Assembly (NCBI GenBank): GCA_019914995.1 | Contig: CM034138.1 | Span: 5,219,903 to 5,283,902, forward strand | Direction of reading: 5' to 3' | Source of the DNA: Acanthochlamys bracteata | Taxonomy: Eukaryota; Streptophyta; Magnoliopsida; Pandanales; Velloziaceae | DNA length: 64,000 nt | Shown: positions 2,745 to 60,447 of the stretch, in pieces | Layout of the letters: each line of letters starts with the position of its first letter | Position numbering within the stretch: position 1 is the stretch's first letter | The notes under the pieces: model-generated | Seen by the model: only the letters and a program-made list of their open reading frames with translations | The model's database searches: none | What the model was told of the DNA's origin: nothing | Position numbers and translations under genes: made by a program

Positions 2745-2957
2745 TACCCATCTACCATTCGGTTTCGCGTCTCTCAAGTTCTCCTTATCACTGGGTCCAC
2801 CTTCCCTCTTTCTTCCACTTTTATTAACGCCGCCTCGCTTCATTTTTTCCCTCCTCCTCCCAACCCTTCATCTTCCTTCCTCGTTCTTAAAAAATCATCA
2901 AAACCTTGTTCAAATCCATTATCCATACAGCTGAGCGTTAGCAAAATTTCAATTCTC
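2745..2957 (+). promoter_or_regulatory. Pyrimidine-rich 5' leader of the DUF1645 gene
   Basis: The stretch before the ATG changes from AT-rich to strongly C/T-rich on the plus strand (repeated CCTCCTCC, CTTCCTTCC and TCTTTC runs). This is typical of plant core promoters (Y patches) and 5' UTRs. No upstream ATG was noticed in the last 100 bp. The transcription start cannot be fixed from sequence alone. Confidence 0.5.
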
Positions 2958-24999: not shown

Positions 25000-27900
25000 T
25001 TTTCACGTACGTTCGCTATCAACTAGCCAATACCCAAATGAGCTTCTTGCACACTGCTTGGATTTCAGCTTGAACATTGACATACCCAGCCTACATCGAA
25101 ACATATGCATAACAAAAAGGTTTTGACAAGCAAGAAACTTAACCGACATGAAATAGATGCCTGACAACCTGAATGTATTGAACAAATGATTGATCCTCTA
25201 GCAAGCACTCCATCCATTCACTTATGCTGAAACAAAGTGGAGACAAAGGAACTAAGCAACTTAAAAGAAACAAAAGAATTCAAAGTAAGGAACTTAACTA
25301 AGGAAGAACATAATTGCTTGATTGATTGTGTCCATTCAAAAAAGTTAACCCTCAATTAGTATAATATCAGCAAAAGCAAGCATGACTTCCTTTTTCCTAT
25401 GCTAGTTGGTGTATTTCAACATAGAATTAACCAGAAGGCTTGCACAAGCAAGCAACTTAACTGAAAAGAAAATGAATACTTATTGATTGAACTTATTGAA
25501 GAAATGTTGACCCTAGCACCAAACAGATGCTTGAATGACTGCTCAATACAATATAGAAAAGTTAAATAAGAAAGCATGCACTTTAAATTCTTGACCTGAG
25601 TTTATGCTGGTTGGATATAAACTAGTGTAACCTTATGAGTTGGCAAAATACCACACCCTGTTGAAATAAAAACTTTGAGAAGCAAGTTTTTGGTATTTAC
25701 TTCTAAATTAAGGAGTCTAATGTAGTAACACTAAGAACAATACACAATGATGGTGTGTTAAAATTTACTACTAATAGCAAATGACACAATGTGAGTCAAA
25801 CAAGACAGCCTTAGGAACTTCTTGCTAAAAACAACATTTGTTGTTTATATTGAATTTTAAATTAATTATGAACCTAGATAGCAAATTAACCAATTAAAAT
25901 GGCAATGTGCACCTTATAACCATCCAAAGCACCGGGCAAGTAGTACATGTATCAATATTTCAAATCTCTAGAAAGTGTGTATTTCTCTTCAAATAAAAAG
26001 AAAAACAATGCAAAGTAAGTCCTCGACAGAACAAAAGCATGAAAAACAATCGCACGGGAAGTAAAGTAAGAAAGTTAAGCAACAAATATTTAAGAGACTC
26101 GGACAACTAATGCCTGATAGCTTGCCTACGCAGAAGAAAGCTTAAGTTTCTTATGTCTGGAATGTTCTTGACTACATTCTTTGAGTTCCTCAACGGAAGA
26201 AGCAAGCTGTAATCCAAGTGTCATTATACAAAACCTCCAGAAAGTGCATCTTGCCCTTCAAGTATTAAGAAAAATCAATGCCAAGTAGGTCCACAATAGT
26301 AAAATAACACGCACTTCCGTTAACTTTTTCAACATAAGAGTTAACAAAAAGGTTTCCCAAGCAAGCAATTTAACTGAGAAGGAAGTAAATACTTTATTAA
26401 ATTGAACACATTGAACAAATATTGACCCACCAGCAAGGTAAGCTGAAATAGGGAGGAAGAATGGAGTTAAAAAAAGGGTACCCATCGAATTAAGTAGGTT
26501 AAGGAGAACGAAAGAATCTAGAGAAGCTAAAAACATACGAAAGGAGAACTACTTGACTGCTTGCCTACATCTGAAAACGGTAGCTCTCCAAGCAGACATG
26601 AAAATTGTCCTAATTGAAGCAAAGTAACAAAGTTAAGTAACAAAAAAATTTAAGAGACATGAACAACTTAAACAATTGTCAAACTAGTGCTTGACTGATT
26701 GACTAACCCGAAGAAAACTTGAGTTGCTTATTCTCTAGAATGATTTTGGCTACAGACCTTTAAGTTCCTTAATGGAAGCAGCAAGATCTAATCCAAGTCT
26801 GTTTAAAACCTCCAGAAAGTGAATCTTGCCCTTTAAGAATTAAGATAGAAGAATGCCAAGTAAGTTTACAACAAAAATAGCATGCAGTTCCTTAACTCAC
26901 CTTTTTCAACATAAGAGTTAACAAGAAAGGATATCACAGGCAAGCAATTTAACTGAGAAGGAAACAACTGCGTGCTTGATTGAACACAGAAGAAAATTGA
27001 CCCACTAGCAAGCACATCATCTATTCTTTTAAGCTGAAATGAGGAGGAAGAACGGAATTTAAAAAAAAAGGATACCAAAGCGAATTAAGCAAGTTAAGGA
27101 GAAGCGAAAGAATATAGAGGAGCAAGAAACTTGACTAAGGAGAACATGACTGTTTGATCGCTTGCCTACATCTACAAAGTTATCTATCGAACAAGCTTTT
27201 AATTCTTTCTTTTGACCGCAAACAAAGATGAAGACATTTATGAATAACAGTTGCAAGTGAAGCAATAATGTCAAGCAACAAAAGACTTAAGAGACTCAGA
27301 CAACTTAACAAATTGCCAAACTAATGCCGAATTGATCGATTACAACAAAGAAAGCTCGAGTTTTTACTGTAATCCAAATGTCACTGTTTCAAACCTCCAA
27401 AAAGTGCACCATATACTTCAAGCATTAACACAAAACAATGTCAATTAAGTCCGCAATAGTAAAGTAACAAGCACCAGGATAGCTTTTGGTTTGTTCCCTT
27501 AACTCACCTATTTCAACATAAGAGTTAACAAAAAGATTTCTACAAGCAAGCAACTTAACCGAGAAGGAAGAAATACTTCACTAATTGAAAACAATGAAGA
27601 AATATGACCCACCCGCAAGCACACCATCTAATCTTTTAAGCTGAAATGAGGAGGAAGACTGGAAGAAATAAAATCGATACCTAGCTTATTAAGCAAGTTA
27701 AGGAGAACGGAATGAATCTAGTGTTGCAAGAAACATAACTAAGGAGACAGGAGAACACAACTACTTAATTGCTTGTCTGCATCAAGAAAGCTAGCCCTCC
27801 AACGAGCTTTGATTCCTTCTTTTAAGCACAAACAAACATGAACACATGAAAAGCAATCACAAGTGAAGCAAAATAAGAAAGTTAAGCAGTAAAAGATGTA

Positions 27901-30470
27901 AGAGTCTCAGACAACTAATGCCTGAAAGATTTTCCGTCCCGAACAAAGCTTGAGTTCCTATTGTCTATAATGTTTTTGACTACATAATTTAAGTTCCTTG
28001 ATGGAAGCAGCAAGTTGTAATCCAAGGGTCATTGTTTCAAACCTCCAGAAAGAGCATCTTGTCTTTCAATTATTAAGACAAAACAATGCCAAGTAAGTTG
28101 ACAATACTAAAATAACAAGCACTTTCCTTATCTCACCTCTTTCAACATAAGAGTTAACAAAAAGGTTTCCTCAAGCAAGCAACTTAATTGAGAAGAACAA
28201 TACTTGATTCATTGAACACATTGAAGAAATATTGACCCACTAACGAGCACACATCTCTTCATTTATGCTGAAATGTGAGGAAAATGGAATAGAAAAATGT
28301 ATCCCTACCAATTTAAGCAAGTTAAGAAGAAGTAAAAGAATCTAGCAGAGCAACAAACTTAACTAAGGAGAACATTACTGCTGGGTTGCTTGCCTATATC
28401 TAGAAAGTTCGCCCTTAACCAGCTCTTGGTTCGTAAGATGAAGACATGAAAACTATCATAAAAGAAGTAAAGTAAGAAAGTTAAGCAATAGAAGATTTAA
28501 GAGATTCGGACAACTTAACAAACTACCAAACTAATGCTTGACTGGTCGCCTACCCGGAAGAAAGCTTAAGTTCCTTAATGGAAGCAGCAAGCTCTAATTT
28601 CAGTGCCATTGTTCTAAACCTCCACAAAGTGCATCTTGTCCTTCAAGTATTAAGACAAAACAATGTCAAGTAAGTCTGTAGTAGTAAAATAACAAGCACT
28701 TCGCTTAACTCACCTTTTTCAATATAATATATAACAAAAGGGTTTCCCTAAGCAAGCAACTTAACTGAAAAAGAACATATACTTGATTGTGAACACATTG
28801 AAGAAATATTGACCCACCCACGAGCACACCATCTATTCTTTGAGCTGAAATGAGGAGGAAGAATGGAATTAAGGAAAAACAGAAAAAGATTCCTAGCGAA
28901 TTAAGCAAGTTTAGGGAGAAGCGAAAGAATTTGGAGGAGGAAGAAACTTAACAAAGAAGAACATGACTTCTTGATCGCTTGTCTACATCTAAAAGTTAGC
29001 CCTCCAACTAGCTCTTGAATCCTTCTTTTGACCTCAAACAAAGATGAAGCTATGACAAACATTTTATTGCAAGTGAAGCAAACTAAGAAAATTAAGCAAC
29101 AAAGAATTAAGCAAGAAATTTAACTAAGGAGACAGGAGAACGTGACTGCTTATTGCTTGCCTATATCAAGAAAGCTAGCCCTCCAAATAGCTCCTGGTTC
29201 CTTCTTTTAAACTCAAACGAAGATGAACACATAATAAACAATCGCAAGGGGACAGGAGAACATGATTGCTTAATGCTTACCTATACCAAGAATCTAGCCC
29301 TCCAAACAGCTCCTGGTTCCTTCTTTTAAACTCAAACGAAGATGAACACATAATAAACAATTGCAAGTGATGCAAAGGAAGAAAGTTAAGCAATAAAAGA
29401 TTTAGAAGACTCTGACAACAATGCTTGACAGATTGCTTTCCTCGAAAGACCTTGAGCTCCTTATTGTCTAGAATGTTTTTTACTACATACCTTGAATTCT
29501 TTAATGGAAGCGGCAACCATAAAAGTCCAAGTGTCATTCTTTCAACCTCTAGAAGTGAAAATTGCCTTTCAAGTATTAAGACAAACAATGCCAAGTAAAC
29601 TCCACAATACTAAAATAAGAAGCACTTCTCTTAGCCACCTCCTTCAACATAAGAGTTAACAAAAAAGTTTCCGCTAGCAAGCAACTTAACTGACAAGGAA
29701 CTAATACTTGATTGATTGAACACATTGAAGACATATTGACCAACTGCGAACACAACATCTATTCTTGTAAGCTGAAATGAAAAGGAAGACTTGACGAAAG
29801 AAAATGGTACCCCTGTGAATTAAGAGAGCTAAGTAGAAGTGAAAGAATTTACAGGAGCAAGAAATTTAACTAAGGAGAACATGACTACTTGATCGTTTGC
29901 CTACATCTAGAAAGTTAGCCCTCCAGGCAGCTCTTGAATCCTTCTTTTGACTTCAAACAAAGATGAAGACATGAAAAACAATCGCAAGTGAAGCAAAGTA
30001 AGAAAGTTAAGCAACAAAAGATTTAACAGACTCAGACAACTTAACAAATTGCCAAACTAATGCTTGACTGATTGCCAATCCTGAAGAAAGCTGTAGAAAG
30101 TATTCCTTATTGTCTAGAATGTTTTTCACTACATCACTTGAATTCCGTAATCGAAGCAGCAAGCTGAAATCCAAGTGTCATTGTCACAAATTTCCAAAAA
30201 GTGCATCTTGTCTTCAAGTAATAAAACAAAATAATGTCAAGTAACAAGCAGTAGGATGACTTCCGATTTTGTTCTCTTAGTTCACGTATTTCAATATAAG
30301 AGTTAATGAAACGATATCCACAAGCAAGCAACTTAACTGAAAAGGAAACAAAATACTTATTTGATTGAACACATTGAAGAAATATTGATCCACAATACAA
30401 GAGTGTACTTGAGCACATAAAAAAAGTACAAGCATAAATTGTAGAAACAAAGTTAAAAAACTCAATCTTC
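25000..30470 (-). repeat. A array, block 1 (~300-bp monomers in dimers and trimers)
   Basis: About nine tandem A units. Landmark TTGACCCACCAGCAAGC-like sites at 25187, 25508, 26421, 26996, 27606, 28233, 28808, 29738 and 30386 are spaced 321, 913, 575, 610, 627, 575, 930 and 648 bp apart, i.e. near-multiples of ~305 bp. A typical unit holds, on the plus strand, a beta-exon relative (CTTATTGTCTAGAATGTTTTTGACTACATACC), an alpha relative (ATAAGAGTTAACAAAAAGG), the monomer core AAGCAAGCAACTTAACTGA, then two mini-exon blocks reading on the minus strand LKRIDGVLAGGSIFLQC and VKRRNQELLGGLTF. Open frames are all under ~110 codons, and conserved peptides fall in different frames. Identity between units looks about 80-90%. 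Confidence 0.85.
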
Positions 30471-30689
30471 ACATTCTCAAGACATGCACAACATTGTATC
30501 AACTTAGAAGCCTCTTCATATATCACTCAAACTGCATCATAGCTTACTTTATTGTGTTGTATAGCTGAAATAGTTTAGGTATTAAGGAAAACAATCAGGG
30601 CTACAGGTCGTCTCAACAGTATGATACTGAAAACACGGACAAGGGTATGGGTCCTTCGTGTTCTCAAACCCTCAAATCCTGTCTTAATT

Positions 30690-33480
30690 ATTATTTTCGA
30701 CCCTACACATTATCTTAAAGGGAAACTGAAAAGAAATGCAAACCAAAGATTGGTACCAGTTTTGACCTTGCTTGATAGTGGGCTGTGATCATGGTCATCA
30801 CCTTCTTAAGTACATAGGAAATCAATTGCATTAAATTCCAGCAACCTATAAGTGGTTCTAGCTTTAACCTGCATGCACATAACAGTTCATAGAATACCAT
30901 ATATTTCGAACTACATTATTTCTGTGCAGTTTATCCAACTCAAAATGCTTTTAATGTAAATAATGGAGCAGTGATGACTTTTTCTTATCTCCATAAAGCC
31001 TAGCAGATCAACTTTGTGCCTCGTGCTTCTGAATCAATGTATATATAAATAAGACTAAATGGCTAATTATGTAAGAAGAAGAATCTGGTTACTAAGATGG
31101 TTAATCAATGTATCTGACAAAGTCAATATACACATTAGCCAGAAGAATCTGGCTGATCGATCTTTCTGACAAAATCTTATAAATGAACCAAAATAGTTGA
31201 TAAATTCTTAAGTAAGAGCAAATGATTTTCTAGATAAACTCAAGCAGCAGAAGTAATACTATTCCATTCTCGATAGGATCAGAACAGCTCATTTGCTCAT
31301 TTTCTAGATAAACTTTTTAGAAACTTCAGAGTCTTAGCTGCACCTAAATTTCTTTGACGTCAAATATGTTCCCTAACATCAAGATGCATGGGACTTGAAT
31401 TTGGTTGGGAGAATTGTTGTCCTTAGTTAAAAGCCAAATACACATTCATTATCCTCTCCCGATAGTCTTGTCAACTAAAAATAACACCCTAATAATAAAA
31501 ATATAACAAGAAAAAGAAAAAATTCTACATGTTTGACTGTGTCTGAAGATTCGCCCTCATTTTCCGTGATCATGGTCATTACTTTTCTTGAGTATGTAAA
31601 CTCCTACTCAGTTGACATTCCAATCGTTAGGGGTCGGTCTTGATCTGCAATAACAAGATAATGCACAAAGTGGCATGGTTTTCAAACAAGTTGTGAAACA
31701 AAGCAACTATCAGGAAATACTAACAACTACAAAGCTACAAGCTTGAGGCAATGTGGTCATGGAATGAATGAAAGAATGTTAAAAGTAATATGACCAAAAA
31801 ACTGGTGCATTTGTAATCATGGTCACTACCATCTTGAGTATAAACGATCTTATGCCTTGTCTACCAGCCACCCGAATCATTCCAAATTACCTATGTACGT
31901 TTTATATGTATGATGAATACATACACATATATATATATGCGTAGGTAAGTACCATGTATTGTATGCAAAGAAGAATCCACCTATCCGTATGCACATATCA
32001 TATGAATGCATGCAGTAGATGTGTCTTAGTAGATTCTACAGTCTTAGATGCTTTTAATTGGCCATCATCTGTATTGCAAGTTATGTTGTCCATATCTCTT
32101 AAAATATGCCATTTAATATAACCAATCCAATAAAAGAAGAAGCTGAAAGCGAGAAAGAATCGACTTTAAATCTTAACCTGAGTTGTTATTGATTCTATAA
32201 AACTACAGTGTATCCTCATAAGTTGACTTTGAGTCATCGACAAAATTCTCAATATTACATTTATGTGTGGAGTCTACCTAGGTGTACGTGCCATTGTGTA
32301 TGTATATTTACGAGTGTGATGATGCATGCATGTAAACAACAATAATTAACATATACATATACACATGTTCACATGAATGCATGTACTAGGTAAGTGTAAG
32401 GACTATCCACAATTTCTAACGAATGCGATGGATGGTGCCCCTAAGGGAGACGGGCTCCAAAGGGGGACAGTGGTCATATCCCCACCATATATTTTAAGCT
32501 TTCTTTTGGTCATAAGCTCCCATGCAAACCTCAATTTACGTTGGGCTTACCACTATTTGCCACAAAGCAGCATAACTAAAATCTCATAGTTCAATCAACA
32601 GGAATATGCACTAGGTGCAAATAAAACCAACTAAGCCGGAATCAAATAAAGAGACATATATGAATAAGACACCAAGGAACGGCACAACATACGACACATC
32701 TCACTTATGCAAAGCGTTTGATCAGGCACAGACAGATAAATTTGACTGACTCGAACAATAGTTCATATTTTCATGTAGCATTCTTCCACCTTTTAACATA
32801 AACGTAGAAGTGTTAACTCAATACTCATCAACTTACTGTCTAGAATTTTTTCCACTCTATGCCTTGAGTTTCTCAATAATGCAGCAAGCTGCAATTCAAG
32901 TATTAGTATTTCAAACCACTAGCAATAGCATCTTTCCCTTCAAGTAATATGGCAAAATGATGATAAGTCCTTAATAGAAAATAATAAGAAGCAGCCGGGT
33001 AACTTCCTATTTGTTCTATTAATTCACATATTCCAGCTGCCAAACTTTGGACTTGAGTAGGTTGTCGATGACAATCCTTTTCTTAAATCATGAATTTTGG
33101 CTTCCTTACTTGGCTCTTCTATCTTCCCACAGCATCTTGTAGAAGAGACTGTCACAATAAGCAGACATACCACACACGCCGATGCACTTTCCAAGCTGTT
33201 AATCAGTAGAAATTTGGGAAGAAAATTTTGAAAGATGGGATTCTAGAGGTACAAAGGGAAACTACAAGCAAAAGGTCAAAATACGAAGAATAGGTTTTAC
33301 CTTAGGAGTTTGTTTTCAGCACTACCTCAAGGTTACAAGATTTAGACCACATTAAGTACAGCCAAAATATCAGGTCATGTTTCATACAAGATTCTTTTGG
33401 TTTGAATTTCTACCAATATGCTATAAAATCTGACTAGCTAACAGCCAAACGAGCATCTTACAAGCCACTTAGATTATAGA
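30690..33480 (-). repeat. D segment 3
   Basis: Aligns in order with D2 and D4: GTGATCATGGTCAT, TTTAACCTGCATGCACA, CAGTTTATCCAACTC, AATGGCTAATTATGTAAGAAG, TCTTAGCTGCACCTAAATT, CAAGATGCATGGGACTTGAAT, GAATGCATGTACTAGGTAAG, CACTTATGCAAAG, then relatives of exons beta and alpha (32840-33090). It is followed at 33490-34230 by sequence without a partner in the window outside the 6.87-kb duplicate. No intact ORF. Confidence 0.75.
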
Positions 33481-34229
33481 TTAAACACATAGATCAGCAA
33501 TTCTATCAAACTTTATAGACATATATAACGACGATCATTTATTCCGGTGACACTAACTGCGGTTATTTGGCACAAAATCCATTATCACATTTCCATTAAC
33601 TTCTGAAAATACCACATATAAAGATAGTATCATTCTAATGTCGCATAAAATTTTTTTGCAATGGTTGGCTCGCTATAATCCACACACATCTCAAACATAA
33701 TTTGTGGCAAACAATGAATAAGTCTTGAAATTTCTAAAGAGTTTCAAATTAAAAGGACATATCCCAAAAAAACATAATATTTGAAGAAAGCATACGCCTG
33801 TATCGACAACCGACAAGGTAACAAAAATACTGAAATATGATTTCAAATATAAAACAGGTTGACATATTAAAAGAATAAATGGCATAAAAAAACAGCATCT
33901 AGAACTTACATGAGCATCTGAGAACGTTCATAAGAACAACAAACCTTAGCACCTAAAAAGGATTAGAACCATTGGTTGCAAGAGTTAGATGCTGACACAA
34001 TGAGCAAAAGAATGTAGAAAGCAATGTGACAGAAACCGACAGTGTCAACTCAAAAGAAAATCCCCACCATATAACAACAAATCGTTAAACAGCAAAATTA
34101 ATTGGAGTAAAGTACGGAATATATTTGACTTTGAAAAGAATATGTACTTAAATTACAAAGACTAATTATACGAGTAGAAGCAATTCCATGAAACAATGTG
34201 CTTCAAGCTCCATATTCTAGATAGCAGAT

Positions 34230-35760
34230 TTCAAGATTCAAATTCACTAGATTCTGTCGTAATATTAGTTTCTATCCTAACTACGGACCTGTATTTTTGT
34301 GATCATGGACATTACCTTCTTTAGAGCACAGTGATCCACACTTTTACCTGCCAATTATTTAGTAATTGGTTCTAACCTTGATCTGCATGCACAAAGCAGT
34401 TCACCGAATACTATATTTTTTGAATTGCATTGTTTCTTTACAGTTTATCCAATTCAATGCTTTTCAATGTACAAAATGGAGCACCGAAGAGTTCTTTTTC
34501 AATCTCCTTAAAACCTAATAACTACTATAGGAATCAGGATGCTAAATCAAATAATATGCTTCCACTCATCTAAAATCAGATCTATATTAGACTAAATAGC
34601 TAATCACACAAGAATGGAACCAAGTGAAAGAATGTGCTTCATACATATTAACAGAAAGCTTATAATGGACCTCTTTGAAAAAAATCTTATAAGGTGAGCC
34701 AAATATACTGGACGACGTCTTAAGTAAGAGCAAACGGTTATCTAGATAAACTCAAACAGCTGAATCAATGCTTTCTCTATAGGATGTGAAGAATTCACCA
34801 GCCTAAAAGCTTTCCAGAAGCTTCAAGTGCTTAGGTGCCCATAAATTCCTCTTACTCCTAAAATGTTTCTTCCTAATACCAAAAATCATGGGGCTTAAAT
34901 GTACTCTGCACCCTCAGGTTTAAGCACGATGCACACTTTTGGCTAAACAATTACTGATCTTATTTTCAACTGAAACTAGAACTCTCAAATCAAAATAAAG
35001 CAAAACAAACATAATCTCATACCTGTTTGGACAATATTTAAGATTCTGCATTTCCTGTGACTATAGTCATTGCTTTTCTTAGGTATGACAAACCTGATGC
35101 CTCCTGTGTTCTGCATTTCCAATACTTAGGACTGCTCTTGATCAGGAATCTCAAAATAATGCACAAAGTAACCTTGCATTTCAAAAGTTAAGGAATTCAT
35201 AAAAAGAACATACAGTTGCAACCCCAACACTAACAACTGCAGGTTTTCCGTTAGGTCGACATTTTGATTTAACTATATTTATTAGCCAACGGACATACTG
35301 CAGTACATAAAAAATATCAAAAATAGAATTCTCAACGTTACTTTTATGTATATGTGGAGTCCATGTATAGTGTGTTGTATTGCTCATGCATATTTATATT
35401 TATGAACGAGTTCATGCATGCATGTAGATAAAATGAATTAACATATCCTTATACACATGCTCACATGAAGGCTTGTACTAGATAAGTCCAAGTACTATCA
35501 ACAATTTTTAAGCCTTCTTATAGACTTGCAAACCTCCATTTATGTTGGGCATACCACTTATTTGTCACGAGGCAACATAAATCAAGTCTCATCTTTTCAT
35601 CAACAGGAATATTTGTTAGGTATGAAAAATACACAAGAAACATAGAAATAGGTGATAATATACCAAGACACCAAGGGAGGATACAACATTGAGTACATCT
35701 CACTTATGCAAAAGGGTTTCAGCCAGCGCAGATACATAAATTTACCAAGCTACAGCAATG
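34230..35760 (-). repeat. D segment 4
   Basis: Diverged copy of D3, offset about 3.5 kb at the left (34290 against 30740) and about 3.0 kb at the right (35450 against 32390), so it lacks several hundred bases. It shares GTTCTAACCTTGATCTGCATGCACAAAGCAGTTCA-type blocks, CAGTTTATCCAAT, TGCATGCATGTAGATAAA and the CACTTATGCAAAAGG end. It passes directly into A-type repeats at about 35800. Confidence 0.75.
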
Positions 35761-35799
35761 CGATCCATAATTTCATATAGCATTCGTCCACCTGTTACC

Positions 35800-36919
35800 A
35801 TAAATGCCAAAAGCTTGAGTTCCTTATTGGCTAGAATGTTTTTGACTACATACCTTGAGTTTGTTATGGAAGTAACAGGCCGTAATTCAAGAATCATTAT
35901 CTCAAACCTCCAGAAACTGCATCTTGCCCTTCAAGTATTAAGACAGAACAAACAAGGGAATAAATACTTCATATTTGAACACAATGAAGAAATATTGACC
36001 CACCCACAAGCACATAATCTATTCTATTAAGTGACAATGAGGAGGAAGAATGGAAAAATGGAAAAGGAAAAAAAAAAAGAAAAGAAAGGTTACCCTAGTT
36101 GGTTAAGCAAGTTAAGGAGGAGTGAAAGAATGACTGCTTGATAAACACCTACATCTAGAAAGGTAACCCTCCAATCAGCTCTTGGTACCTTGTTTTGATA
36201 TCAAAACAAATCTGGAGACATGAAAAGCATCATAAGTGAAGCAAAGTAAGAAAAGTTAAGCAACAGAATATTTAAGAAATTCAGACAGCTTAACAAATTG
36301 CCACACTAATGTTTGAGTTCCTTGTGTCTAGAATGTTTTTTTTTGACTACATATCCGGCGTTCCTTAATGGAACCAACAAGCTGTATCCAAGAATCATTG
36401 TATGAAACATCCAGAAAAGTGCATTTGTCCTTCCAAGTTTTAAGACAAAACAATGCCAAATAAGTCTCCAATACTAAAATAACAAGTAGCATGGTGACTA
36501 CCTGGTTATTCCCTTAATTCACTTATCTAAACATAAGAGTTAACAAAAAAGGATTCCACAAGCAAGCAGCTTACTAAACAAAACGAAAAGAACTAGATTG
36601 ATTGAACACAACGAAGAAATATTAACCCACCACCAAGCATACCATCTATTCGTTTAAGCTGAAATGAGGAGGAAGAATGAAAAAAAAAAAAAGAAAAAGT
36701 ACAGCGACTTAAGCAAGTACAGAGAAGCAAAGGAATGGAGAGGAGCAAGAAACTTAACTAAGGAGAGCATGACCGCTTGATTGCTTGCCGACATCTACAA
36801 AGTAGCTCTCCTAAGCAGCTGTTGGTTCCTTGTTTTGACCTAAAACAAAAATAATGACATGAAAAAAATCATCAGCAAAGTAAGAAACCTAAGCATCAAA
36901 AGATTAAGAACTAGGACAA
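35800..36919 (-). repeat. A array, block 2
   Basis: About two A units with landmarks at 35996 (TTGACCCACCCACAAGC) and 36620 (TTAACCCACCACCAAGC), 624 bp apart. Each has the beta relative, alpha relative and two mini-exon cores in the standard order. A homopurine AAAAGG-type stretch at 36056-36090 is expanded in this block. It ends at the junction with the second 6.87-kb copy. Confidence 0.85.
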
Positions 36920-39900
36920 TTAACAAATTGCCAAACTAATGCTTGACTGATTGCCAATCCTGAAGAAAGCTGTAGAAAGTATTCCTTATTGTCTAGAATG
37001 TTTTTCACTACATCACTTGAATTCCGTAATCGAAGCAGCAAGCTGAAATCCAAGTGTCATTGTCACAAATTTCCAAAAAGTGCATCTTGTCTTCAAGTAA
37101 TAAAACAAAATAATGTCAAGTAACAAGCAGTAGGATGACTTCCGATTTTGTTCTCTTAGTTCACGTATTTCAATATAAGAGTTAATGAAACGATATCCAC
37201 AAGCAAGCAACTTAACTGAAAAGGAAACAAAATACTTATTTGATTGAACACATTGAAGAAATATTGATCCACAATACAAGAGTGTACTTGAGCACATAAA
37301 AAGTACAAGCATAAATTGTAGAAACAAAGTTAAAAAACTCAATCTTCACATTCTCAAGACATGCACAACATTGTATCAACTTAGAAGCCTCTTCATATAT
37401 CACTCAAACTGCATCATAGCTTACTTTATTGTGTTGTATAGCTGAAATAGTTTAGGTATTAAGGAAAACAATCAGGGCTACAGGTCGTCTCAACAGTATG
37501 ATACTGAAAACACGGACAAGGGTATGGGTCCTTCGTGTTCTCAAACCCTCAAATCCTGTCTTAATTATTATTTTCGACCCTACACATTATCTTAAAGGGA
37601 AACTGAAAAGAAATGCAAACCAAAGATTGGTACCAGTTTTGACCTTGCTTGATAGTGGGCTGTGATCATGGTCATCACCTTCTTAAGTACATAGGAAATC
37701 AATTGCATTAAATTCCAGCAACCTATAAGTGGTTCTAGCTTTAACCTGCATGCACATAACAGTTCATAGAATACCATATATTTCGAACTACATTATTTCT
37801 GTGCAGTTTATCCAACTCAAAATGCTTTTAATGTAAATAATGGAGCAGTGATGACTTTTTCTTATCTCCATAAAGCCTAGCAGATCAACTTTGTGCCTCG
37901 TGCTTCTGAATCAATGTATATATAAATAAGACTAAATGGCTAATTATGTAAGAAGAAGAATCTGGTTACTAAGATGGTTAATCAATGTATCTGACAAAGT
38001 CAATATACACATTAGCCAGAAGAATCTGGCTGATCGATCTTTCTGACAAAATCTTATAAATGAACCAAAATAGTTGATAAATTCTTAAGTAAGAGCAAAT
38101 GATTTTCTAGATAAACTCAAGCAGCAGAAGTAATACTATTCCATTCTCGATAGGATCAGAACAGCTCATTTGCTCATTTTCTAGATAAACTTTTTAGAAA
38201 CTTCAGAGTCTTAGCTGCACCTAAATTTCTTTGACGTCAAATATGTTCCCTAACATCAAGATGCATGGGACTTGAATTTGGTTGGGAGAATTGTTGTCCT
38301 TAGTTAAAAGCCAAATACACATTCATTATCCTCTCCCGATAGTCTTGTCAACTAAAAATAACACCCTAATAATAAAAATATAACAAGAAAAAGAAAAAAT
38401 TCTACATGTTTGACTGTGTCTGAAGATTCGCCCTCATTTTCCGTGATCATGGTCATTACTTTTCTTGAGTATGTAAACTCCTACTCAGTTGACATTCCAA
38501 TCGTTAGGGGGTCGGTCTTGATCTGCAATAACAAGATAATGCACAAAGTGGCATGGTTTTCAAACAAGTTGTGAAACAAAGCAACTATCAGGAAATACTA
38601 ACAACTACAAAGCTACAAGCTTGAGGCAATGTGGTCATGGAATGAATGAAAGAATGTTAAAAGTAATATGACCAAAAAACTGGTGCATTTGTAATCATGG
38701 TCACTACCATCTTGAGTATAAACGATCTTATGCCTTGTCTACCAGCCACCCGAATCATTCCAAATTACCTATGTACGTTTTATATGTATGATGAATACAT
38801 ACACATATATATGCACGTAGGTAAGTACCATGTGCGTATGCAAAGAAGAATCCACCTATCCGTATGCACATATCATATGAATGCATGCAGTAGATGTGTC
38901 TTAGTAGATTCTACAGTCTTAGATGCTTTTAATTGGCCATCATCTGTATTGCAAGTTATGTTGTCCATATCTCTTAAAATATGCCATTTAATATAACCAA
39001 TCCAATAAAAGAAGAAGCTGAAAGCGAGAAAGAATCGACTTTAAATCTTAACCTGAGTTGTTATTGATTCTATAAAACTACAGTGTATCCTCATAAGTTG
39101 ACTTTGAGTCATCGACAAAATTCTCAATATTACATTTATGTGTGGAGTCTACCTAGGTGTACGTGCCATTGTGTATGTATATTTACGAGTGTGATGATGC
39201 ATGCATGTAAACAACAATAATTAACATATACATATACACATGTTCACATGAATGCATGTACTAGGTAAGTGTAAGGACTATCCACAATTTCTAACGAATC
39301 GATGGATGGTGCCCCTAAGGGAGACGGGCTCCAAAGGGGGACAGTGGTCATATCCCCACCATATATTTTAAGCTTTCTTTTGGTCATAAGCTCCCATGCA
39401 AACCTCAATTTACGTTGGGCTTACCACTATTTGCCACAAAGCAGCATAACTAAAATCTCATAGTTCAATCAACAGGAATATGCACTAGGTGCAAATAAAA
39501 CCAACTAAGCGGAATCAAATAAAGAGACATATATGAATAAGACACCAAGGAACGGCACAACATACGACACATCTCACTTATGCAAAGCGTTTGATCAGGC
39601 ACAGACAGATAAATTTGACTGACTCGAACAATAGTTCATATTTTCATGTAGCATTCTTCCACCTTTTAACATAAACGTAGAAGTGTTAACTCAATACTCA
39701 TCAACTTACTGTCTAGAATTTTTTCCACTCTATGCCTTGAGTTTCTCAATAATGCAGCAAGCTGCAATTCAAGTATTAGTATTTCAAACCACTAGCAATA
39801 GCATCTTTCCCTTCAAGTAATATGGCAAAATGATGATAAGTCCTTAATAGAAAATAATAAGAAGCAGCCGGGTAACTTCCTATTTGTTCTATTAATTCAC

Positions 39901-42900
39901 ATATTCCAGCTGCCAAACTTTGGACTTGAGTAGGTTGTCGATGACAATCCTTTTCTTAAATCATGAATTTTGGCTTCCTTTTGGCTCTTCTATCTTCCCA
40001 CAGCATCTTGTAGAAGAGACTGTCACAATAAGCAGACATACCACACACATGATGCACTTTCCAAGCTGTTAATCAGTAGAAATTTGGGAAGAAAATTTTT
40101 GAAAGATGGGATTCTAGAGGTACAAAGGGAAACTACAAGCAAAAGGTCAAAATACGAAGAATAGGTTTTACCTTAGGAGTTTGTTTTCAGCACTACCTCA
40201 AGGTTACAAGATTTAGACCACATTAAGTACAGCCAAAATATCAGGTCATGTTTCATACAAGATTCTTTTGGTTTGAATTTCTACCAATATGCTATAAAAT
40301 CTGACTAGCTAACAGCCAAACGAGCATCTTACAAGCCACTTAGATTATAGATTAAACACATAGATCAGCAATTCTATCAAACTTTATAGACATATATAAC
40401 GACGATCATTTATTCCGGTGACACTAACTGCGGTTATTTGGCACAAAATCCACTATCACATTTCCATTAACTTCTGAAAATACCACATATAAAGATAGTA
40501 TCATTCTAATGTCGCATAAAATTTTTGCAATGGTTGGCTACGCTATAATCCACACATCTCAAACATAATTTGTGGCAAACAATGAATAAGTCTTGAAATT
40601 TCTAAAGAGTTTCAAATTAAAAGGACATATCCCAAAAAAACATAATATTTGAAGAAAGCATACGCCTGTATCGACAACCGACAAGGTAACAAAAATACTG
40701 AAATATGATTTCAAATATAAAACAGGTTGACATATTAAAAGAATAAATGGCATAAAAAAACAGCATCTAGAACTTACATGAGCATCTGAGAACGTTCATA
40801 AGAACAACAAACCTTAGCACCTAAAAGGATTAGAACCATTGGTTGCAAGAGTTAGATGCTGACACAATGAGCAAAAAAAGAATGTAGAAAGCAATGTGAC
40901 AGAAAACCGACAGTGTCAACTCAAAAGAAAATCCCCACCATATAACAACAAATCGTTAAACAGCAAAATTAATTGGAGTAAAGTACGGAATATATTTGAC
41001 TTTGAAAAGAATATGTACTTAAATTACAAAGACTAATTATACGAGTAGAAGCAATTCCATGAAACAATGTGCTTCAAGCTCCATATTCTAGATAGCAGAT
41101 TTCAAGATTCAAATTCACTAGATTCTGTCGTAATATTAGTTTCTATCCTAACTACGGACCTGTATTTTTGTGATCATGGACATTACCTTCTTTAGAGCAC
41201 AGTGATCCACACTTTTACCTGCCAATTATTTAGTAATTGGTTCTAACCTTGATCTGCATGCACAAAGCAGTTCACCGAATACTATATTTTTTGAATTGCA
41301 TTGTTTCTTTACAGTTTATCCAATTCCAATGCTTTTTCAATGTACAAAATGGAGCACCGAAGAGTTCTTTTTTCAATCTCCTTAAAACCTAATAACTACT
41401 ATAGGAATCAGGATGCTAAATCAAATAATATGCTTCCACTCATCTAAAATCAGATCTATATTAGACTAAATAGCTAATCACACAAGAATGGAACCAAGTG
41501 AAAGAATGTGCTTCATACATATTAACAGAAAGCTTATAATGGACCTCTTTGAAAAAAATCTTATAAGGTGAGCCAAATATACTGGACGACGTCTTAAGTA
41601 AGAGCAAACGGTTATCTAGATAAACTCAAACAGCTGAATCAATGCTTTCTCTATAGGATGTGAAGAATTCACCAGCCTAAAAGCTTTCCAGAAGCTTCAA
41701 GTGCTTAGGTGCCCATAAATTCCTCTTACTCCTAAAATGTTTCTTCCTAATACCAAAAATCATGGGGCTTAAATGTACTCTGCACCCTCAGGTTTAAGCA
41801 CGATGCACTTTTGGCTAAACAATTACTGATCTTATTTTCAACTGAAACTAGAACTCTCAAATCAAAATAAAGCAAAACAAACATAATCTCATACCTGTTT
41901 GGACAATATTTAAGATTCTGCATTTCCTGTGACTATAGTCATTGCTTTTCTTAGGTATGACAAACCTGATGCCTCCTGTGTTCTGCATTTCCAATACTTA
42001 GGACTGCTCTTGATCAGGAATCTCAAAATAATGCACAAAGTAACCTTGCATTTCAAAAGTTAAGGAATTCATAAAAAGAACATACAGTTGCAACCCCAAC
42101 ACTAACAACTGCAGGTTTTCCGTTAGGTCGACATTTTGATTTAACTATATTTATTAGCCAACGGACATACTGCAGTACGCCAAAAATATCAAAAATAGAA
42201 TTCTCAACGTTACTTTTATGTATATGTGGGAGTCCATGTATAGTGTGTTGTATTGCTCATGCATATTTATATTTATGAACGAGTTCATGCATGCATGTAG
42301 ATAAAATGAATTAACATATCCTTATACACATGCTCACATGAAGGCTTGTACTAGATAAGTCCAAGTACTATCAACAATTTTTTAAGCCTTCTTATAGACT
42401 TGCAAACCTCCATTTATGTTGGGCATACCACTTATTTGTCACGAGGCAACATAAATCAAGTCTCATCTTTTCATCAACAGGAATATTTGTTAGGTATGAA
42501 AAATACACAAGAAACATAGAAATAGGTGATAATATACCAGACACCAAGGGAGGATACAACATTGAGTACATCTCACTTATGCAAAAGGGTTTCAGCCAGC
42601 GCAGATACATAAATTTACCAAGCTACAGCAATGCGATCCATAATTTCATATAGCATTCGTCCACCTGTTACCATAAATGCCAAAAGCTTGAGTTCCTTAT
42701 TGGCTAGAATGTTTTTGACTACATACCTTGAGTTTGTTATGGAAGTAACAGGCCGTAATTCAAGAATCATTATCTCAAACCTCCAGAAACTGCATCTTGC
42801 CCTTCAAGTATTAAGACAGAACAAACAAGGGAATAAATACTTCATATTTGAACACAATGAAGAAATATTGACCCACCCACAAGCACATAATCTATTCTAT

Positions 42901-43785
42901 TAAGTGACAATGAGGAGGAAGAATGGAAAAATGGAAAAGGAAAAAAAAAAGAAAAGAAAGGTTACCCTAGTTGGTTAAGCAAGTTAAGGAGGAGTGAAAG
43001 AATGACTGCTTGATCGCTTACCTACATCTAGAAAGGTAACCCTCCAATCAGCTCTTGGTACCTTGTTTTGATATCAAAACAAATCTGGAGACATGAAAAG
43101 CATCGCAAGTGAAGCAAAGTAAGAAAAGTTAAGCAACAGAATATTTAAGAAATTCAGACAGCTTAACAAATTGCCACACTAATGTTTGAGTTCCTTGTGT
43201 CTAGAATGTTTTTGACTACATATCCGACGTTCCTTAATGGAACCAACAAGCTGTATCCAAGAATCATTGTATGAAACATCCAGAAAAGTGCATTTGTCCT
43301 TCCAAGTTTTAAGACAAAACAATGCCAAATAAGTCTCCAATACTAAAATAACAAGTAGCATGGTGACTACCTGGTTATTCCCTTAATTCACTTATCTAAA
43401 CATAAGAGTTAACAAAAAGGATTCCACAAGCAAGCAGCTTACTAAAAACGAAAGAACTAGATTGATTGAACACAACGAAGAAATATTAACCCACCACCAA
43501 GCATACCATCTACTCGTTTAAGCTGAAATGAGGAGGAAGAATGAAAAAAAAAGAAAAAGAAAAGTACCCCAGCGACTTAAGCAAGTACAGAGAAGCAAAG
43601 GAATGGAGAGGAGCAAGAAACTTAACTAAGGAGAGCATGACCGCTTGATTGCTTGCCGACATCTACAAAGTAGCTCTCCTAAGCAGCTGTTGGTTCCTTG
43701 TTTTGACCTAAAACAAAAATAATGACATGAAAAATCATCGCAAAGTAAGAAACCTAAGCATCAAAAGATTAAGAACTAGGACAAT
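36920..43785. repeat. 6.87-kb tandem duplication, copy 2
   Basis: Second copy of 30041-36919 (6866 against 6879 bp). It repeats D3 (about 37570-40350), D4 (about 41100-42640) and A block 2 (about 42690-43785). The seam at 36920 joins ...GGACAAT to TAACAAATTGCC, and the right edge at 43785 returns to ordinary A-unit sequence (CTGATTGCCTACCCTGAAG instead of CTGATTGCCAATCCTGAAG). This is what a single unequal crossover between two A monomers would give. Confidence 0.95.
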
Positions 43786-44830
43786 TAGCAATTGCCAAAC
43801 TAATGCTTGACTGATTGCCTACCCTGAAGAATACTTGAGTTCCTTATTGTCTAGAATGTTTTTTACTACATACCTTGATTTCCTAAATGGAAGTAGCAAG
43901 CTGTAATCCAAGAATAATTGTCTCAAACCTCTAGAAAGTGCATCTTACCCTTCACGTATTAAGACAAAAAATGCCAAGTGAGTCCGCAATAGCAAAATAG
44001 CAAGCAGCAAGATGACTTCATGTTTGTTCCCTTAATGAACCTATTTCAACATAAGAGTTAATAAAAAGGCTCCCACAAGAAAGAAACTTAAACTGAAAGG
44101 AAACAAATACTTGATTGATTGAACACCATGAAGAAATATTCACCTACCAGCAAGCACACCGTCTATTCTTTTAACTGAAATGAGAAAGAAGAATTGAAAC
44201 TAAGAAATAAACAAATCAGTACCCCAGCAAATTAAGCAAGTTAAGAGGAAGCAAAGAATCTAGAGAGCAGAGAAACGTAACTAAGGAGAACATGACCTCT
44301 TAATTGCTTGCCGACATCTAGAAAGTTAGCCCTTCAAGCAGGTCTTGGTTCCTTCTTTTGACCTCAAACAAAGATGAAGACCTGAAAAATAACGGCAAGT
44401 GAAGCAAAGTAAGGTTAAGCAGCAAAGTTTTAAGAGACAAGAACAACTTAATAAATGCCAAAATAATACTTGAGTGATTGCCTACCCCGAAGAAAGCTTG
44501 AGTTCCTTATTGTCTAAAATATTTTAACTACATAACTTGAGCTCCTAAATAGGAGCAGCTAGCTGTAATCTGAGAGTGTCATTGTTTGAAACCTTCAGAA
44601 AGTGCAACTTAGCCTTCAAATATTAGACAAAACAATGCTAAGTAAATCCCAAATAGTAAGATAATAAGCAGCAGGTGATGTCCTGTTTATTTCCTTAATT
44701 CACCTATTTCAACAAAAGAGTTATTGAAAGGATTCTACAAGAAAACAACTTAACTGAAAGGAAACAAATACTTGATTGATTGAAATTTGAAGAATATTCA
44801 CCCACCCAAGCAAGCACACTGTCAAGCTGA
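43786..44830 (-). repeat. A array, block 3
   Basis: Continuation of the A array after the 6.87-kb duplicate, with beta-like blocks near 43850 and 44510, alpha-like ATAAGAGTTAATAAAAAGG near 44050, and landmark sites at 44140 and 44800 (660 bp apart). The last unit breaks off at AGCACACTGTCAAGCTGAAT and joins B-type sequence. Confidence 0.8.
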
Positions 44831-52400: not shown

Positions 52401-52950
52401 AAAAAGATTCCAAAAGATAGGCATCTTACTACTTGGGTACTTGGATGCCTGGTTTATTAACACAATGTCCCTCCAACAGGAGATCCGCTACATTAATAAC
52501 ATGAAACAAAGTGGAAGTTAAGGAAAAATCATTAGGCAAACATACTAAGTAAGTAGGAAGTTGCAGTAAAGATTCAGAGGAGCAGAAAACATAACTATTA
52601 AGTTGAGTGCCAGCTTAATAGATCGCGAGCATTCATTGAAAACTTGGCCTTACAACCAGTTAAGTCTAACCATTTTTAGAGCTGAAACAAGTAGGCAAAA
52701 TAAAAGCAATCAAACCCGAGCAAACTTAGAAAATTAAGAAGAAGCAGAATGATAGAGAGGATCACGCAACTAAACTATCAAGGCAAAGGGCTGCTAACTA
52801 ATTACCTGCATTGAAGAGAAATTCAACCTCCAACAAAAACTCTTAGCTTTTTTAACCTGAAAAAGAAGAGAAACAGATGAAAAAGTTCGCAATGAAGACA
52901 TATATTCAGCACAAAGAATTCAGAGAAGCACCTAACTTAACCAAGTAAGC

Positions 52951-53498
52951 AAATAACTGCTTCACTTATTACAATCAATGTTCGAAAGTAGACCTTCTCA
53001 CCAGCCCTCGCATGGTTCCTGCAACACGATATTATGGAAAAGATTAGCCCCTCAAATGAGAAACTTAATCAAGCCAGCTGTTCGTTTGATGATCTGTCCT
53101 AGATACATAAAAGAGCAAGGATGCAATAGGAAACAAATAGCAAACCATAATGCGTATGAAATAATTAGCAAAATAAAGTGACAAAAGGATCACAATAAGC
53201 ATCAATAATCAAATAACAAAGCCAAAATAACTGCTTCACTTATTACAATCAATGTTCGAAAGTAGACCTTCTCACCAGCCCTCGCGTGGTTCCTGCAATA
53301 TGATATTATGGAAAAGATTAGACCCCCCAAATGAGAAGCTTAATCAAGCTAACTGTTCGTTCGATGATCTGTCCTAGATACATAAAAGAGTAAGGATGCA
53401 ATAGGAAACAAATAGCAAACCATAATGTGTATGAGATAATTAGCAAAATAAAGTGACAAAAGGATCACAATAAGCAACAATAATCAAATAACAAAGCC
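52951..53498. repeat. Recent 274-bp tandem duplication inside the B array
   Basis: 52951-53224 is repeated at 53225-53498 with only a handful of differences, much closer than B units are to each other. Each copy spans the AAATAACTGCTTCACTTATT core with its mini-exon and the TGTATGAGATAATTAGC/TGCGTATGAAATAATTAGC segment. It is one of the youngest local events in the array. Confidence 0.85.
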
Positions 53499-56400
53499 AG
53501 AACTACTGATCGTTTAAATTTTGAGATTTAAAGGTTGAAAATGGCAGAATATTGAACCCAACAGGGCATAATATTCGCTCTAAACAATAAGCTATCTCGA
53601 CAGAAAGCAACTCCAGCTGCGCACTTTAGCCTTAAAAGCATGTCAGATACGAAATCAGAGTTCGTAGTAAGCACTTATGAATACAAAACAGCAAAAACAA
53701 CGTACAGCAAAGGAAACATGCAAAATTTCCCAACAAAAAACTATCAAAAATGAAATGAAACATAAAACATAACCAGACAAGACATTCTTGGAAAGTTATG
53801 GACAAACATGAGAAAATAATAGTTCATGAACTGCTAACTCCTACCTGTTACTTATAACAAACTTCCATCTCTACATGGCATAAAACAGAAAACATAGTTC
53901 AATAGGTCAGATCAGCAAGAGAAACTAATTAATCAGTGAAAAACAAATTTGCGCAACTTAAGCATCAAGAAAAAGATTCCAGAAAATAGGCATCTTACTA
54001 CTTGGTACTTGGATGCCTGGTTTATTAGCACCTTGTCCCTCCAACAGCCATCCGCTACATTAATAACTTGAAACAAAGTGGATGTTAGGGAAAAATCATT
54101 AGGCAAACATACTAAATAGGAAGTTGCAGCAAAGATTCAGAGGAGCAGAAAACATAACTATTAAGTTGAGTGGCAGCTTAATAAATCGCGAGCATTGATT
54201 GACAACTTAGCCTTCCAACCAGAAGTCCAAACCTGCTTAGAGCTGAAACAAGCGGGCAAAACAAAAACAATCAGACCCAAGTAAACTTAGGAAATTAAGA
54301 AGCAGCAGAATGATAGAGAGGATCACGCAACTAAACTATCAAGGCAAAGGGCTACTAACTAATTGCCTGCATTGAAGAGAAGTTCAACTTCCAACCAAAA
54401 CTCTTAGCTTCTTTAACCTGCAAAAGAGAAACAGATGAAAAAGTTCGCAATCAAGACATACATTCAGCACAAAGAATTCAGAGAAGCACCTAGCTTAACC
54501 AAGCAAGCAAATAACTGCTTCACTTATTACAATCAATGTTCGAAAGTAGACCTTCTCACTAGCCCTCGAGTGGTTCCTGCAACACGATATTAGAGAAAAG
54601 ATTAGGCCTCCCTAATGAGAAGCTTAATCAAACCAGCTGTTCTTTGGATGATCTGTCCTAGATACCTAAAAGAGCAAGGATGCAATAGGGAAGAAATAGC
54701 ATACCTGAATGTGTATGAGATAATTAGCAACTTAAGGTGACAATAGGATCACAATGAGCACCAATAATCAAAATAACAAAGTCTGAACTCCCGATTGTTT
54801 AAATTTTGAGATTTAAAGGTAGAAAATGGCAGAATATCGAACCCAATATTCCAAATTCTGAGTTGAAGTATAGTATTACGAATGGGAAGGAAATCTTATA
54901 AGTTAGAGAACACAAGGCAAGATATCAGATAAGTTGTAGAGTTGTTTGTCAAGAATTACGTAGAGAATTTACATTACTAGACTTTATGACCTTTTAGGTA
55001 TAATTCGTCAATTTAAAACGACAACCAAATTTGAAGGCAAAAGCTCATCACCCTACCACAAACTGTTAGGTAGCATCTTTAAAAGAATAGTATTACATAA
55101 CAGAATGATCTAACATTCGTAAATAGTAGACATTCTTATAACATTACGGACCTAGTTGACAAAATAATAGTTCATCAACTGCTAACTCCTACCTGTTACT
55201 TCTAACAAGCTCCCATCTGTACATGGCATAAAACAGAAACATATTCCAAAATACATAGTTCAATCGGTCAGGTCAGCAGGAGAAACTAATTAATCAGTGA
55301 GAAACAAACTTAAGCAATTTAAGCATCAAGAAAAAGATTCCAGAGAATAGGCATCTTACTACTTGGTACTTGGATGCCTGGTTTATTAACACAACGTCCC
55401 TCCAATAGGCCACTCGCTACATTAATAACCTGAAACAAAGTGAAAGTTAGGGAAAAATCATTAGGCAAACATACTAGTTGGAAGTTGCATCAAAGATTCA
55501 GAGGAGCAGAAAACTTAACTACTAAGATGAGTGGGAGCTTAATAGATCGCGAGTGTTGAAGACAACTTGGCCTTACAACCAGAAGTCTAAACTTTTTTAG
55601 AGCTGAAACAAAGCAAGCAAATTAAAAACAATCAAACCCGAGTAAACTTAAAAATTTGAGAAAAAGCAGAATGATAGAGAGGAGCACGTAACTAAACTAT
55701 CAAGACAAGGGGCTGCTAACTCATTGCCTGCATTGAAGAGAAGGTGAACCCCCAACCAAAACTCATAGTCTTTTTAACCTGAAAAGGAAGAGAAACAGAT
55801 GAAAAAGTTCCCAATCTAGACATACATTCAGCACAAAGAATTCAGAGAAAAACCTAACTTAAGCAAGCGAGCAAATAACTGCTTCACTTATTACAATCAA
55901 TGTTCGAAAGTTGACCTTCTCAACAGCGCTCGCATTGTTCTTGCAACACAAAATTAGGGAAAAGATTAGACCTCCCTAATGAGAAGCTTAATCAAACCAG
56001 CTGTTCATTGGATGATCTGTCCTCGATACCTAAAAGAGCAAGGATGTAAAATGGAACAAATAGCAAACCAGAATGTTAATGAGATAATTAGCAGCTTAAA
56101 GTGACAAAAGGATCACAATGAGCACCAATAATCGAAATAACAATAACTGAACTCCCGATTGTTTAAATTTTGAGATTTAAAGGTAGAAAATGGCAGAATA
56201 TCGAACCCAACATTGAAAATTCTAAGTTGAAGTAGAGTATTACGATGGGAAGGAAATCTTATATGATAGAGACTTAACACAAGCACAAACAAAAAGGAAA
56301 CACGAGGCAAGATATCATATAAGCCGTAGGGTTCTTTTTCAAGAATTAGGGAGAGAATTTACATTACTAGACTATATGACCTTTTAGGTATAATTCGTCA

Positions 56401-58871: not shown

Positions 58872-58890
58872 GTTAAGAAGAAGAAGAAGA
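58872..58890. repeat. (GAA)n microsatellite
   Basis: Five to six GAA/AAG triplets expanded in the monomer position that elsewhere reads AAGAAGAAGCAGAATG. This shows slippage within the monomer. Confidence 0.8.
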
Positions 58891-60447
58891 AGCCGAATGA
58901 TACAGAGGAGCACGCAGATAAACTATCACGACACGGGGCTTCATAACACATTGCCGGCATTGAAGAGAAGTTGACCCTCCAACCAAAACTCTTTAGTTTT
59001 CTTAAGCTTAAATGAAGAGAAATATACGAAACATTATGCAATCAAGACATACATACAGCACAAAGAATTCAGAGAAGCACGTAATTTAACCAAGCAAGCG
59101 AATAATGCATGTTAGACAAGAAACCGAAGTTAGCTTTATCAATACAAAACAGCATAGATAACATGCAGCAAAAGAAGCATCCAAAATTTACTACAACAAA
59201 CTACAAAACATCCTTGGAACATTTCATGAATTTCTAACTCCGACCAGCTATGTGAAACTAGCGTCCATCTTTAAATGGCTGAAAACAGAAGACAAATTGT
59301 AAGATCCCTAGTTCAACAATCAGATCAGCAGGAGAAGCTAATTAATGAGTGCAAGACAAGTTTCAGCAATTTAAGCATCAGCAAAAAGATTCCAAAAAAC
59401 AGGCACCTTAACTAGCCCGGTATTTAGATGGCTGATTTATTATCACATTGACCCTCCAACTGACAGTCTGCTGCTTTAGTAACCTAAAACAAGTGGGAGA
59501 TAGGAGAAAAGGTTACAGCAAGCAAACTAAGAAAGTAGCAAGTTACAGCAAAGATTCAGATGAGCAGGAAACTTAACTATCAAGGAGAGTGGCGGCTTAA
59601 TAAATCACGAACATTGGAGACAAGTTGGCCCTCCAATCAGAAGTCTAATCTTTCTTAGAGCTGAAACAAAGCATGTACAAGAAAAAGAATCACACGCAAG
59701 CAAACTCAGAAAGTTAAGTAGAAGCAGAATGATACAGACGAGCTCGCAAGGGGCAGAGTAACTCATTACCGGCATTGAAGGCAAATTGACCCTCCAACCA
59801 AAACTCTTCAGTTATTTTAACCTGAAACGAATAAAAGATATGAAACAGTATGCAAGCAAGACATACAGGCAGCCACAATGAATTCAGAAAAGCACATACC
59901 TTAACCAACCAAGCGAATAACTGCTTCACTTATTACCATTATTGTTCAAAATTAGACCTCATCACCAACGCTTGCATGATTCTTATAACCTGAAATTAGG
60001 CAAAACAAAACAAAAGATTAGATCCCCCTACTGAGAAGCTTAATCACACTAGCTGTTCTTCAGACCATCCAGTCCTAGAAACCTAGAAGAGGAAGGATGC
60101 AAAAGAGGATAAATAGGAAATCAAAATGTGTATTAGATAATTCACGACTTAAAGTGACAAAAGCGACAACAAAAAGAGAACATAAAGCAAGATATCATAT
60201 AAGTAATGTTGCACCTAAGATTTATTTATCAAGAATTTCTTAGAGTTATTATATTACTCTAGTTTATCACTTTTAGGCATGATGCATCAATTTAAACCGA
60301 CCAACAAATTTTAAGACAAAAACTCATCACCTTCCCACAAAACAGCTGAAGGCATCCTAAGAAAAAAGCAGTGCTAAATAACAGAGTGTTCTAACATGCC
60401 TAAGTAATAGAATGTTCTAACAGTTATTATATTGGTTGTCTCAACTA

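What the first reader, a model, noticed from the sequence alone, without database searches (positions are those of the whole stretch)
25000..60447. One ~300-bp monomer family built into two different higher-order arrays
The A units (~0.6 kb) and B units (~1.3-1.8 kb) look unrelated at first, but their inter-core sequences align. AAGTTAAGGAGAAGCGAAAG..CTAGAGGAGCA..AACTTAACTAAG in A corresponds to AAGTTAAGAAGAAGCAGAAT..AGAGAGGAGCA..CAACTAAAC and AAGCACCTAACTTAACCAAGC in B. A-array landmark spacings (321, 575, 610, 627, 648, 913, 930 bp) are near-multiples of ~305 bp. This is a satellite-like hierarchy (monomer, higher-order unit, segment) made from what looks like intron-plus-exon sequence rather than from a typical satellite or transposon.
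Basis: seen in the sequence. Interest (0 to 1): 0.8.

Follow-up and report, generated by a model that had tools for sequence, protein, structure and literature searches.

The report
Layered satellite repeat from one monomer
This stretch of a plant-like genome holds two repeat arrays built from the same short DNA unit of about 171 letters, copied at several levels; it looks like an ordinary kind of satellite DNA with an unusually readable history rather than a gene.

Summary
The core of the finding holds. A and B repeats share one monomer family (window consensus A vs B: 65% identity over 378 columns, score 173 against a maximum of 54 in 300 shuffles). A profile finds 66 copies in the window, all on one strand, and none in six controls. 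A tree puts 143 of 146 monomers in five clades that follow position in the unit: A1, A2, B1, B2, B3. Corrections: monomer spacing is about 171 bp, not about 305. Only the monomer runs are shared: an A unit (~657 bp) is two monomers plus an unrelated ~220-bp filler; a B unit (~1.6-1.76 kb) is three monomers plus ~1.08 kb of filler. The intron-plus-exon reading has weak support. In this 195.5-Mb genome the family was found in restricted zones of a dozen contigs; nine tested sites lie nearer mid-contig and gag-rich zones than random points, and different sites amplified different units. Best reading: a low-copy, pericentromere-biased complex satellite made by stepwise duplication. No transcript, species name, related genome or repeat library was available.

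The parts
25154..30393 (-). A-type array: monomer pairs alternating with a ~220-bp filler; first-of-pair spacings of five units 589-918 bp
   Evidence: nhmmer monomer hits; filler hits; spacings
30400..35800 (.). S segment: intervening sequence without full monomers; carries one filler copy (32832-33035) and blocks with relatives on C1, C6, C8, C12, C15, C16, C19
35815..37272 (-). A-type units, second block
37290..42650 (.). S segment, second copy (its first 4.4 kb are 99% identical to the first copy)
   Evidence: L013
42688..46574 (-). A-type units, third block, interleaved with the first B-like sequence from about 44.83 kb
29262..44140 (.). 8.1-kb tandem duplication: 29262-37265 against 36130-44140, 95.2% identity
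46472..60443 (-). B-type array: units mostly of about 1.28-1.76 kb, each a run of three monomers between half monomers plus ~1.08 kb of filler
52951..53499 (.). 275-bp tandem doublet inside the B array, 95% matches
26967..27309 (-). Example A pair: two adjacent monomers (98.0 and 68.0 bits)
52441..52941 (-). Example B triplet: three adjacent monomers (83.9, 96.3, 93.4 bits)

Best explanation
A low-copy complex satellite, most likely noncoding. Shown: a ~171-bp monomer occurs in two kinds of composite unit, A (pair plus unrelated ~220-bp filler) and B (triplet plus ~1.08-kb filler), on one strand of this window; the units form arrays, and arrays were copied again as larger segments. Inferred: a short monomer run inside a longer low-copy sequence was duplicated with its neighbouring DNA by unequal exchange or replication-based copying, at different places with different boundaries, which fixed the A and B units; later exchange homogenised copies by position; segmental duplication carried blocks along C13 and to C17, where a B variant lacking about 138 bp expanded. 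Likely no sequence-specific function beyond being pericentromeric repeat DNA.
For: Shared monomer. Both units are runs of whole monomers flanked by cut monomers, with unrelated remainders. Five position clades; A1 and A2 each hold members from C12, C13, C15, C16 and C17, so the pair predates the spread. Regular arrays elsewhere: ~657 bp at C13 5.035 and 4.94 Mb, ~1618 bp on C17. Nearer units are more alike on C17 (30 units, Spearman -0.39) and C13b (17 units, -0.30). Of the C17 units listed, 5 span the whole query and most others break at query 953-1092. No tested frame is open in more than 132 of 292 monomer segments or 35 of 81 filler segments. None of 14 array frames searched has a Pfam family over its cut-off; no Rfam match reaches its gathering score. 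Nine sites lie nearer mid-contig (p 0.0007) and gag matches (p 0.0005) than random points.
Against: The third array tested (C13a, 12 units) shows no identity-distance trend (Spearman 0.07). Copia matches alone give p 0.033, with 0 of 7 near the C8 site, 0 of 3 near C19 and 1 of 9 near C12. True centromeres are unknown here. S blocks are recognisable at about 64-79% across contigs with exon-like edges, more than a plain neutral satellite needs to show. Some frames are open more often than in shuffled segments (35 of 81 vs 14-17; 132 of 292 vs 72-89), though related copies are not independent. Copy number found is low for a classic satellite.
Confidence: 0.68

Rival explanations
1. A long noncoding RNA gene family: T-rich monomers are intron, the A filler and S blocks contain exons, and repeated exon-intron modules arose by tandem duplication.
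For: Minus strand is T-rich in monomers and B filler (T-A skew 0.34, 0.31, 0.22) while the A filler is balanced (0.02), an intron/exon-like contrast; splice-like signals in excess on the minus strand of the array; S blocks with donor-like edges recognisable on several contigs.
Against: Monomer acceptor AG kept in 38 of 51 window copies and 0 of 13 on C332; donor column mostly GC or TC; exon-like part least conserved (0.668 vs 0.721 and 0.729); no minus-strand splice excess in the S segment (0 acceptors, 1 donor). No transcript data.
Confidence: 0.15
2. A satellite born from tandem repeats inside an LTR-retrotransposon or other mobile element, as described for Lathyrus (PMC7004042, abstract and section list seen).
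For: Sites lie near gag-rich zones; tandem runs sit inside longer sequence shared between contigs.
Against: Matches found in restricted zones of 12 contigs (at most 40 candidates scored per search, so lower bounds), against 2487 first-look RVT_2 candidates genome-wide; no Pfam element protein in 14 array frames searched of 229 of 45 aa or more. LTRs were not searched and no repeat library was available.
Confidence: 0.12
3. Decayed tandem array of a protein-coding gene or exon.
For: Some short open frames repeat between copies, and some frames are open more often than in shuffled segments.
Against: Segment lengths fall in all three classes modulo three; the best frame is open in only 35 of 81 fillers and 132 of 292 monomer segments; no Pfam match over cut-off in 14 array frames. 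B filler and S were not frame-tested.
Confidence: 0.04

Closest known systems
Nucleosome-length plant centromeric/pericentromeric satellites
   Same: AT-rich, ~171-bp monomer, tandem, mid-contig sites; [quoted passage not shown]
   Different: Low copy, interrupted by fillers, A and B monomers only ~65% alike, no evidence of CENH3
Higher-order repeats of alpha satellite
   Same: Blocks of diverged monomers amplified together (PMC8122249, passage seen), so clades follow position in the unit
   Different: Units contain long unrelated filler; two unit types from one monomer family; copies scattered on several contigs
Retrotransposon-derived satellites of Lathyrus sativus
   Same: Short tandem runs inside longer sequence, expanded mainly in primary constrictions (PMC7004042, abstract and section list seen)
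   Different: No parent element identified here; restricted zones rather than genome-wide dispersal in the searches made

Membership tests
Satellite DNA with higher-order repeats | Tandem, same-orientation monomers of one family | tested here: met
   66 window hits, one strand, 0 in five shuffled and one reversed window; the profile was trained partly on the window
Satellite DNA with higher-order repeats | Monomers cluster by position in the unit | tested here: met
   143 of 146 monomers in five position clades, support 0.97 or more; backbone weakly supported
Satellite DNA with higher-order repeats | Local homogenisation of neighbouring units | tested here: inconclusive
   Seen in 2 of 3 arrays tested
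Satellite DNA with higher-order repeats | Noncoding | tested here: inconclusive
   Monomer and A filler keep no frame open; 14 of 229 array frames searched in Pfam; B filler and S not frame-tested; no transcripts
Centromeric satellite | Binds CENH3 / lies in the functional centromere | not testable with these tools
   Only proximity to mid-contig and gag-rich zones
LTR-retrotransposon-derived satellite | Monomers inside an element with LTRs and element genes | tested here: inconclusive
   No such protein in 14 array frames searched; LTRs not searched; no repeat library
Spliced long noncoding RNA gene | Conserved splice sites and transcription | tested here: inconclusive
   Splice sites not conserved across monomers; transcription not testable
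Known structured RNA | Rfam match over gathering score | tested here: not met
   3 matches at E up to 1, 24.7-27.2 bits against cut-offs of 85-86

The most novel reading that the evidence does not exclude
A pericentromere-confined noncoding RNA gene family, present in one restricted zone on each of at least nine contigs, whose intron-like tandem runs repeatedly seed new satellites: each site amplifies its own unit (A ~657 bp, B ~1618 bp, C19 ~1914 bp), giving a visible series of satellite births from a transcribed locus.
Probability: 0.12. Interest if true: 0.65.

Novelty: new member of a known kind. Interest (0 to 1): 0.36.

Why it matters
How higher-order satellites begin is hard to see because mature arrays erase their history. 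Here intermediate stages sit side by side: a monomer pair in a little-repeated context (C15, C16), two composite unit types with different fillers, and arrays with different degrees of homogeneity on several contigs. If confirmed, it is a useful worked case; it is not a new kind of element.

Tried and rejected
Rejected: a ~305-bp monomer; A and B as wholly homologous units (remainders unrelated); conserved coding exons in monomer and A filler; known RNAs and tRNAs; C17 as simply the other haplotype of the window: window 1-24.4 kb has no match at E 1e-10 in the 110 kb of C17 read, and the DUF1645 gene region has its only other match on C14 at 75% and 72%. Led nowhere: RNA model R1 could not be used on the genome; paper searches for this family or species (listings seen), the mangrove guess behind being recall only. 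An earlier version of the position test with eight contigs and Copia alone gave p 0.011, and p 0.0025 for mid-contig; one search replaces it.

Full report
What is there. The window is C13:5219903-5283902 of an unnamed 195.5-Mb genome in 557 contigs. It looks plant-like: Copia-type RVT_2 and gag domains are abundant and a DUF1645 gene lies in the left flank; that DUF1645 is a plant family is recalled. Self-comparison at E 1e-8 shows only same-strand repeats over 26-60.4 kb, with an 8.1-kb tandem duplication at 95.2%. Tandem Repeats Finder, limited to 500-bp periods, reports only five short rows inside 25-61 kb, among them doublets of 119 and 275 bp; it does not see the long units.

Are A and B one family? 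Consensus units were made from window copies (8 A, 7 B) and from regular arrays elsewhere (32 A, 30 B). Window A and B consensuses align at 65% over 378 columns with score 173; 300 dinucleotide shuffles gave mean 37.8 and maximum 54. The regular-array consensuses align more weakly: 72 against a maximum of 57 in 100 shuffles. The two halves of A align with each other (91 vs maximum 41; regular-array A 47 vs 44, marginal); the rotation with the best score was picked first and the shuffles do not allow for that.

The monomer. An iterated profile of 173 positions finds 66 copies in the window at E up to 0.01 (53 at E up to 1e-6; one weak hit, at 22410, lies outside the array), all on the minus strand, and none in five shuffled and one reversed window. 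The profile was trained partly on the window, so strand and spacing matter more than the count. Spacings under 250 bp (37 of 65) have median 171 bp. A units hold two whole monomers and B units three, each run flanked by cut monomers. The rest is filler: about 220 bp in A and 1082 bp in B; the remainders of A and B score 36 against a maximum of 44 in 200 shuffles. The A filler is itself a module: 20 hits in the window, some inside the S segments, with relatives on C8 and C12.

Tree. 146 monomers were used: all 51 window, 28 C12, 2 C15, 2 C16 and 3 C8 monomers that passed the length cut, and random draws of 24 of 134 from C17, 18 of 44 from C13a and 18 of 45 from C13b. 48 fall in A1, 46 in A2, 18 in B1, 15 in B2 and 16 in B3, with supports 0.97 or more; the three others are from C8. 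Deeper branches have weak support (0.29-0.76). A few members carry labels that do not fit or are ambiguous: one C12 first-of-pair in A2, the run of four at 28.9-29.4 kb, some single copies and some C17 pairs. A1 and A2 both include C12, C15, C16, C13 and C17, so the pair existed before those loci separated.

Elsewhere in the genome. Matches were found on C1, C6, C7, C8, C11, C12, C13, C15, C16, C17, C19 and the unplaced C332; each search scored at most 40 candidates, so this is a lower bound. The monomer itself was confirmed by profile on C8, C12, C13, C15, C16, C17 and C332, and not found in the stretches read from C1, C6, C19 or in 1 kb each of four other unplaced contigs. C7, C11 and part of C1 rest on weak or other-segment matches. 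C17 carries 46 B core matches, mostly 1.6 kb apart; of the units listed, 5 span the whole 1.4-kb query and most others lack about 138 bp of it. C19 repeats a 1914-bp unit made of other blocks of the family at 96.7%, with six places listed about 1.9 kb apart.

Position on contigs. For nine contigs with known length, one site each (C7, C11 and secondary sites left out), the mean distance from mid-contig is 0.10 of contig length (p 0.0007). The lists are the best 150 of 698 and 2487 candidates; 78 and 70 rows lie on the nine contigs. This suggests, but does not prove, a pericentromeric location.

Gene or not? Minus-strand splice-like signals in the array exceed shuffles, but copying one signal would give that, and the S segment shows no excess. 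Across monomers TTT (48 of 51 in the window) is kept better than AG (38 of 51), the donor column is mainly GC or TC, and the exon-like segment is the least conserved. The most often open frame is open in 132 of 292 monomer segments and 35 of 81 filler segments; that is more than in shuffled segments (72-89 and 14-17), but far from a kept frame. Twenty open frames, 14 of them in the array, gave one Pfam family over its cut-off, DUF1645 in the flank; one DUF418 match below cut-off is taken as chance. The S blocks shared between contigs remain the best reason to keep the RNA-gene rival.

Mechanism. Shown: shared monomers, position clades, nested duplications, an expanded B variant on C17. Inferred: unequal exchange or replication-based copying, and absence of function. 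Distance-dependent similarity was found in 2 of 3 arrays (C17, 30 units; C13b, 17 units) and not in C13a (12 units); unit pairs are not independent, so the p-values there are only indicative.

Known or new. Nucleosome-length monomers, higher-order units and expansion near constrictions are all described (PMC8122249, passages seen; PMC7004042, abstract and section list seen). What is less usual is the composite unit with unrelated filler and two unit types from one monomer family in one 35-kb stretch. I could not check whether this family is catalogued.

Noticed in passing
window 2676-3896 (+): DUF1645 gene (PF07816, 104 bits); its only other genome match is on C14 at 75% and 72%, perhaps from an old genome duplication.
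   Followed up: partly
window about 63209-63504: Palindrome-like repeat, about 69-77% identical to copies on many contigs in both orientations: MITE-like.
   Followed up: no
   Followed up: no
C17:3722559-3724754: The C17 copy of window 61.5-64.0 kb is followed directly by an inverted copy of window 59.2-61.5 kb, 89%.
   Followed up: partly
L042 (C19:3643301-3647300): A separate 1914-bp tandem unit made of other blocks of the same family, 96.7% between the two copies read, no monomer found in it.
   Followed up: partly
window about 30790, 31575 and 31815: Three copies in the S segment of a GATCATGGTCAT-like motif beside a donor-like edge (read by eye); similar stretches appear on C6, C8 and C16 relatives.
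   Followed up: partly
L033-L034 (C12:5207337-5215911): A-type array with a superperiod of about 3.88 kb, six A-type units: a further level of hierarchy.
   Followed up: no
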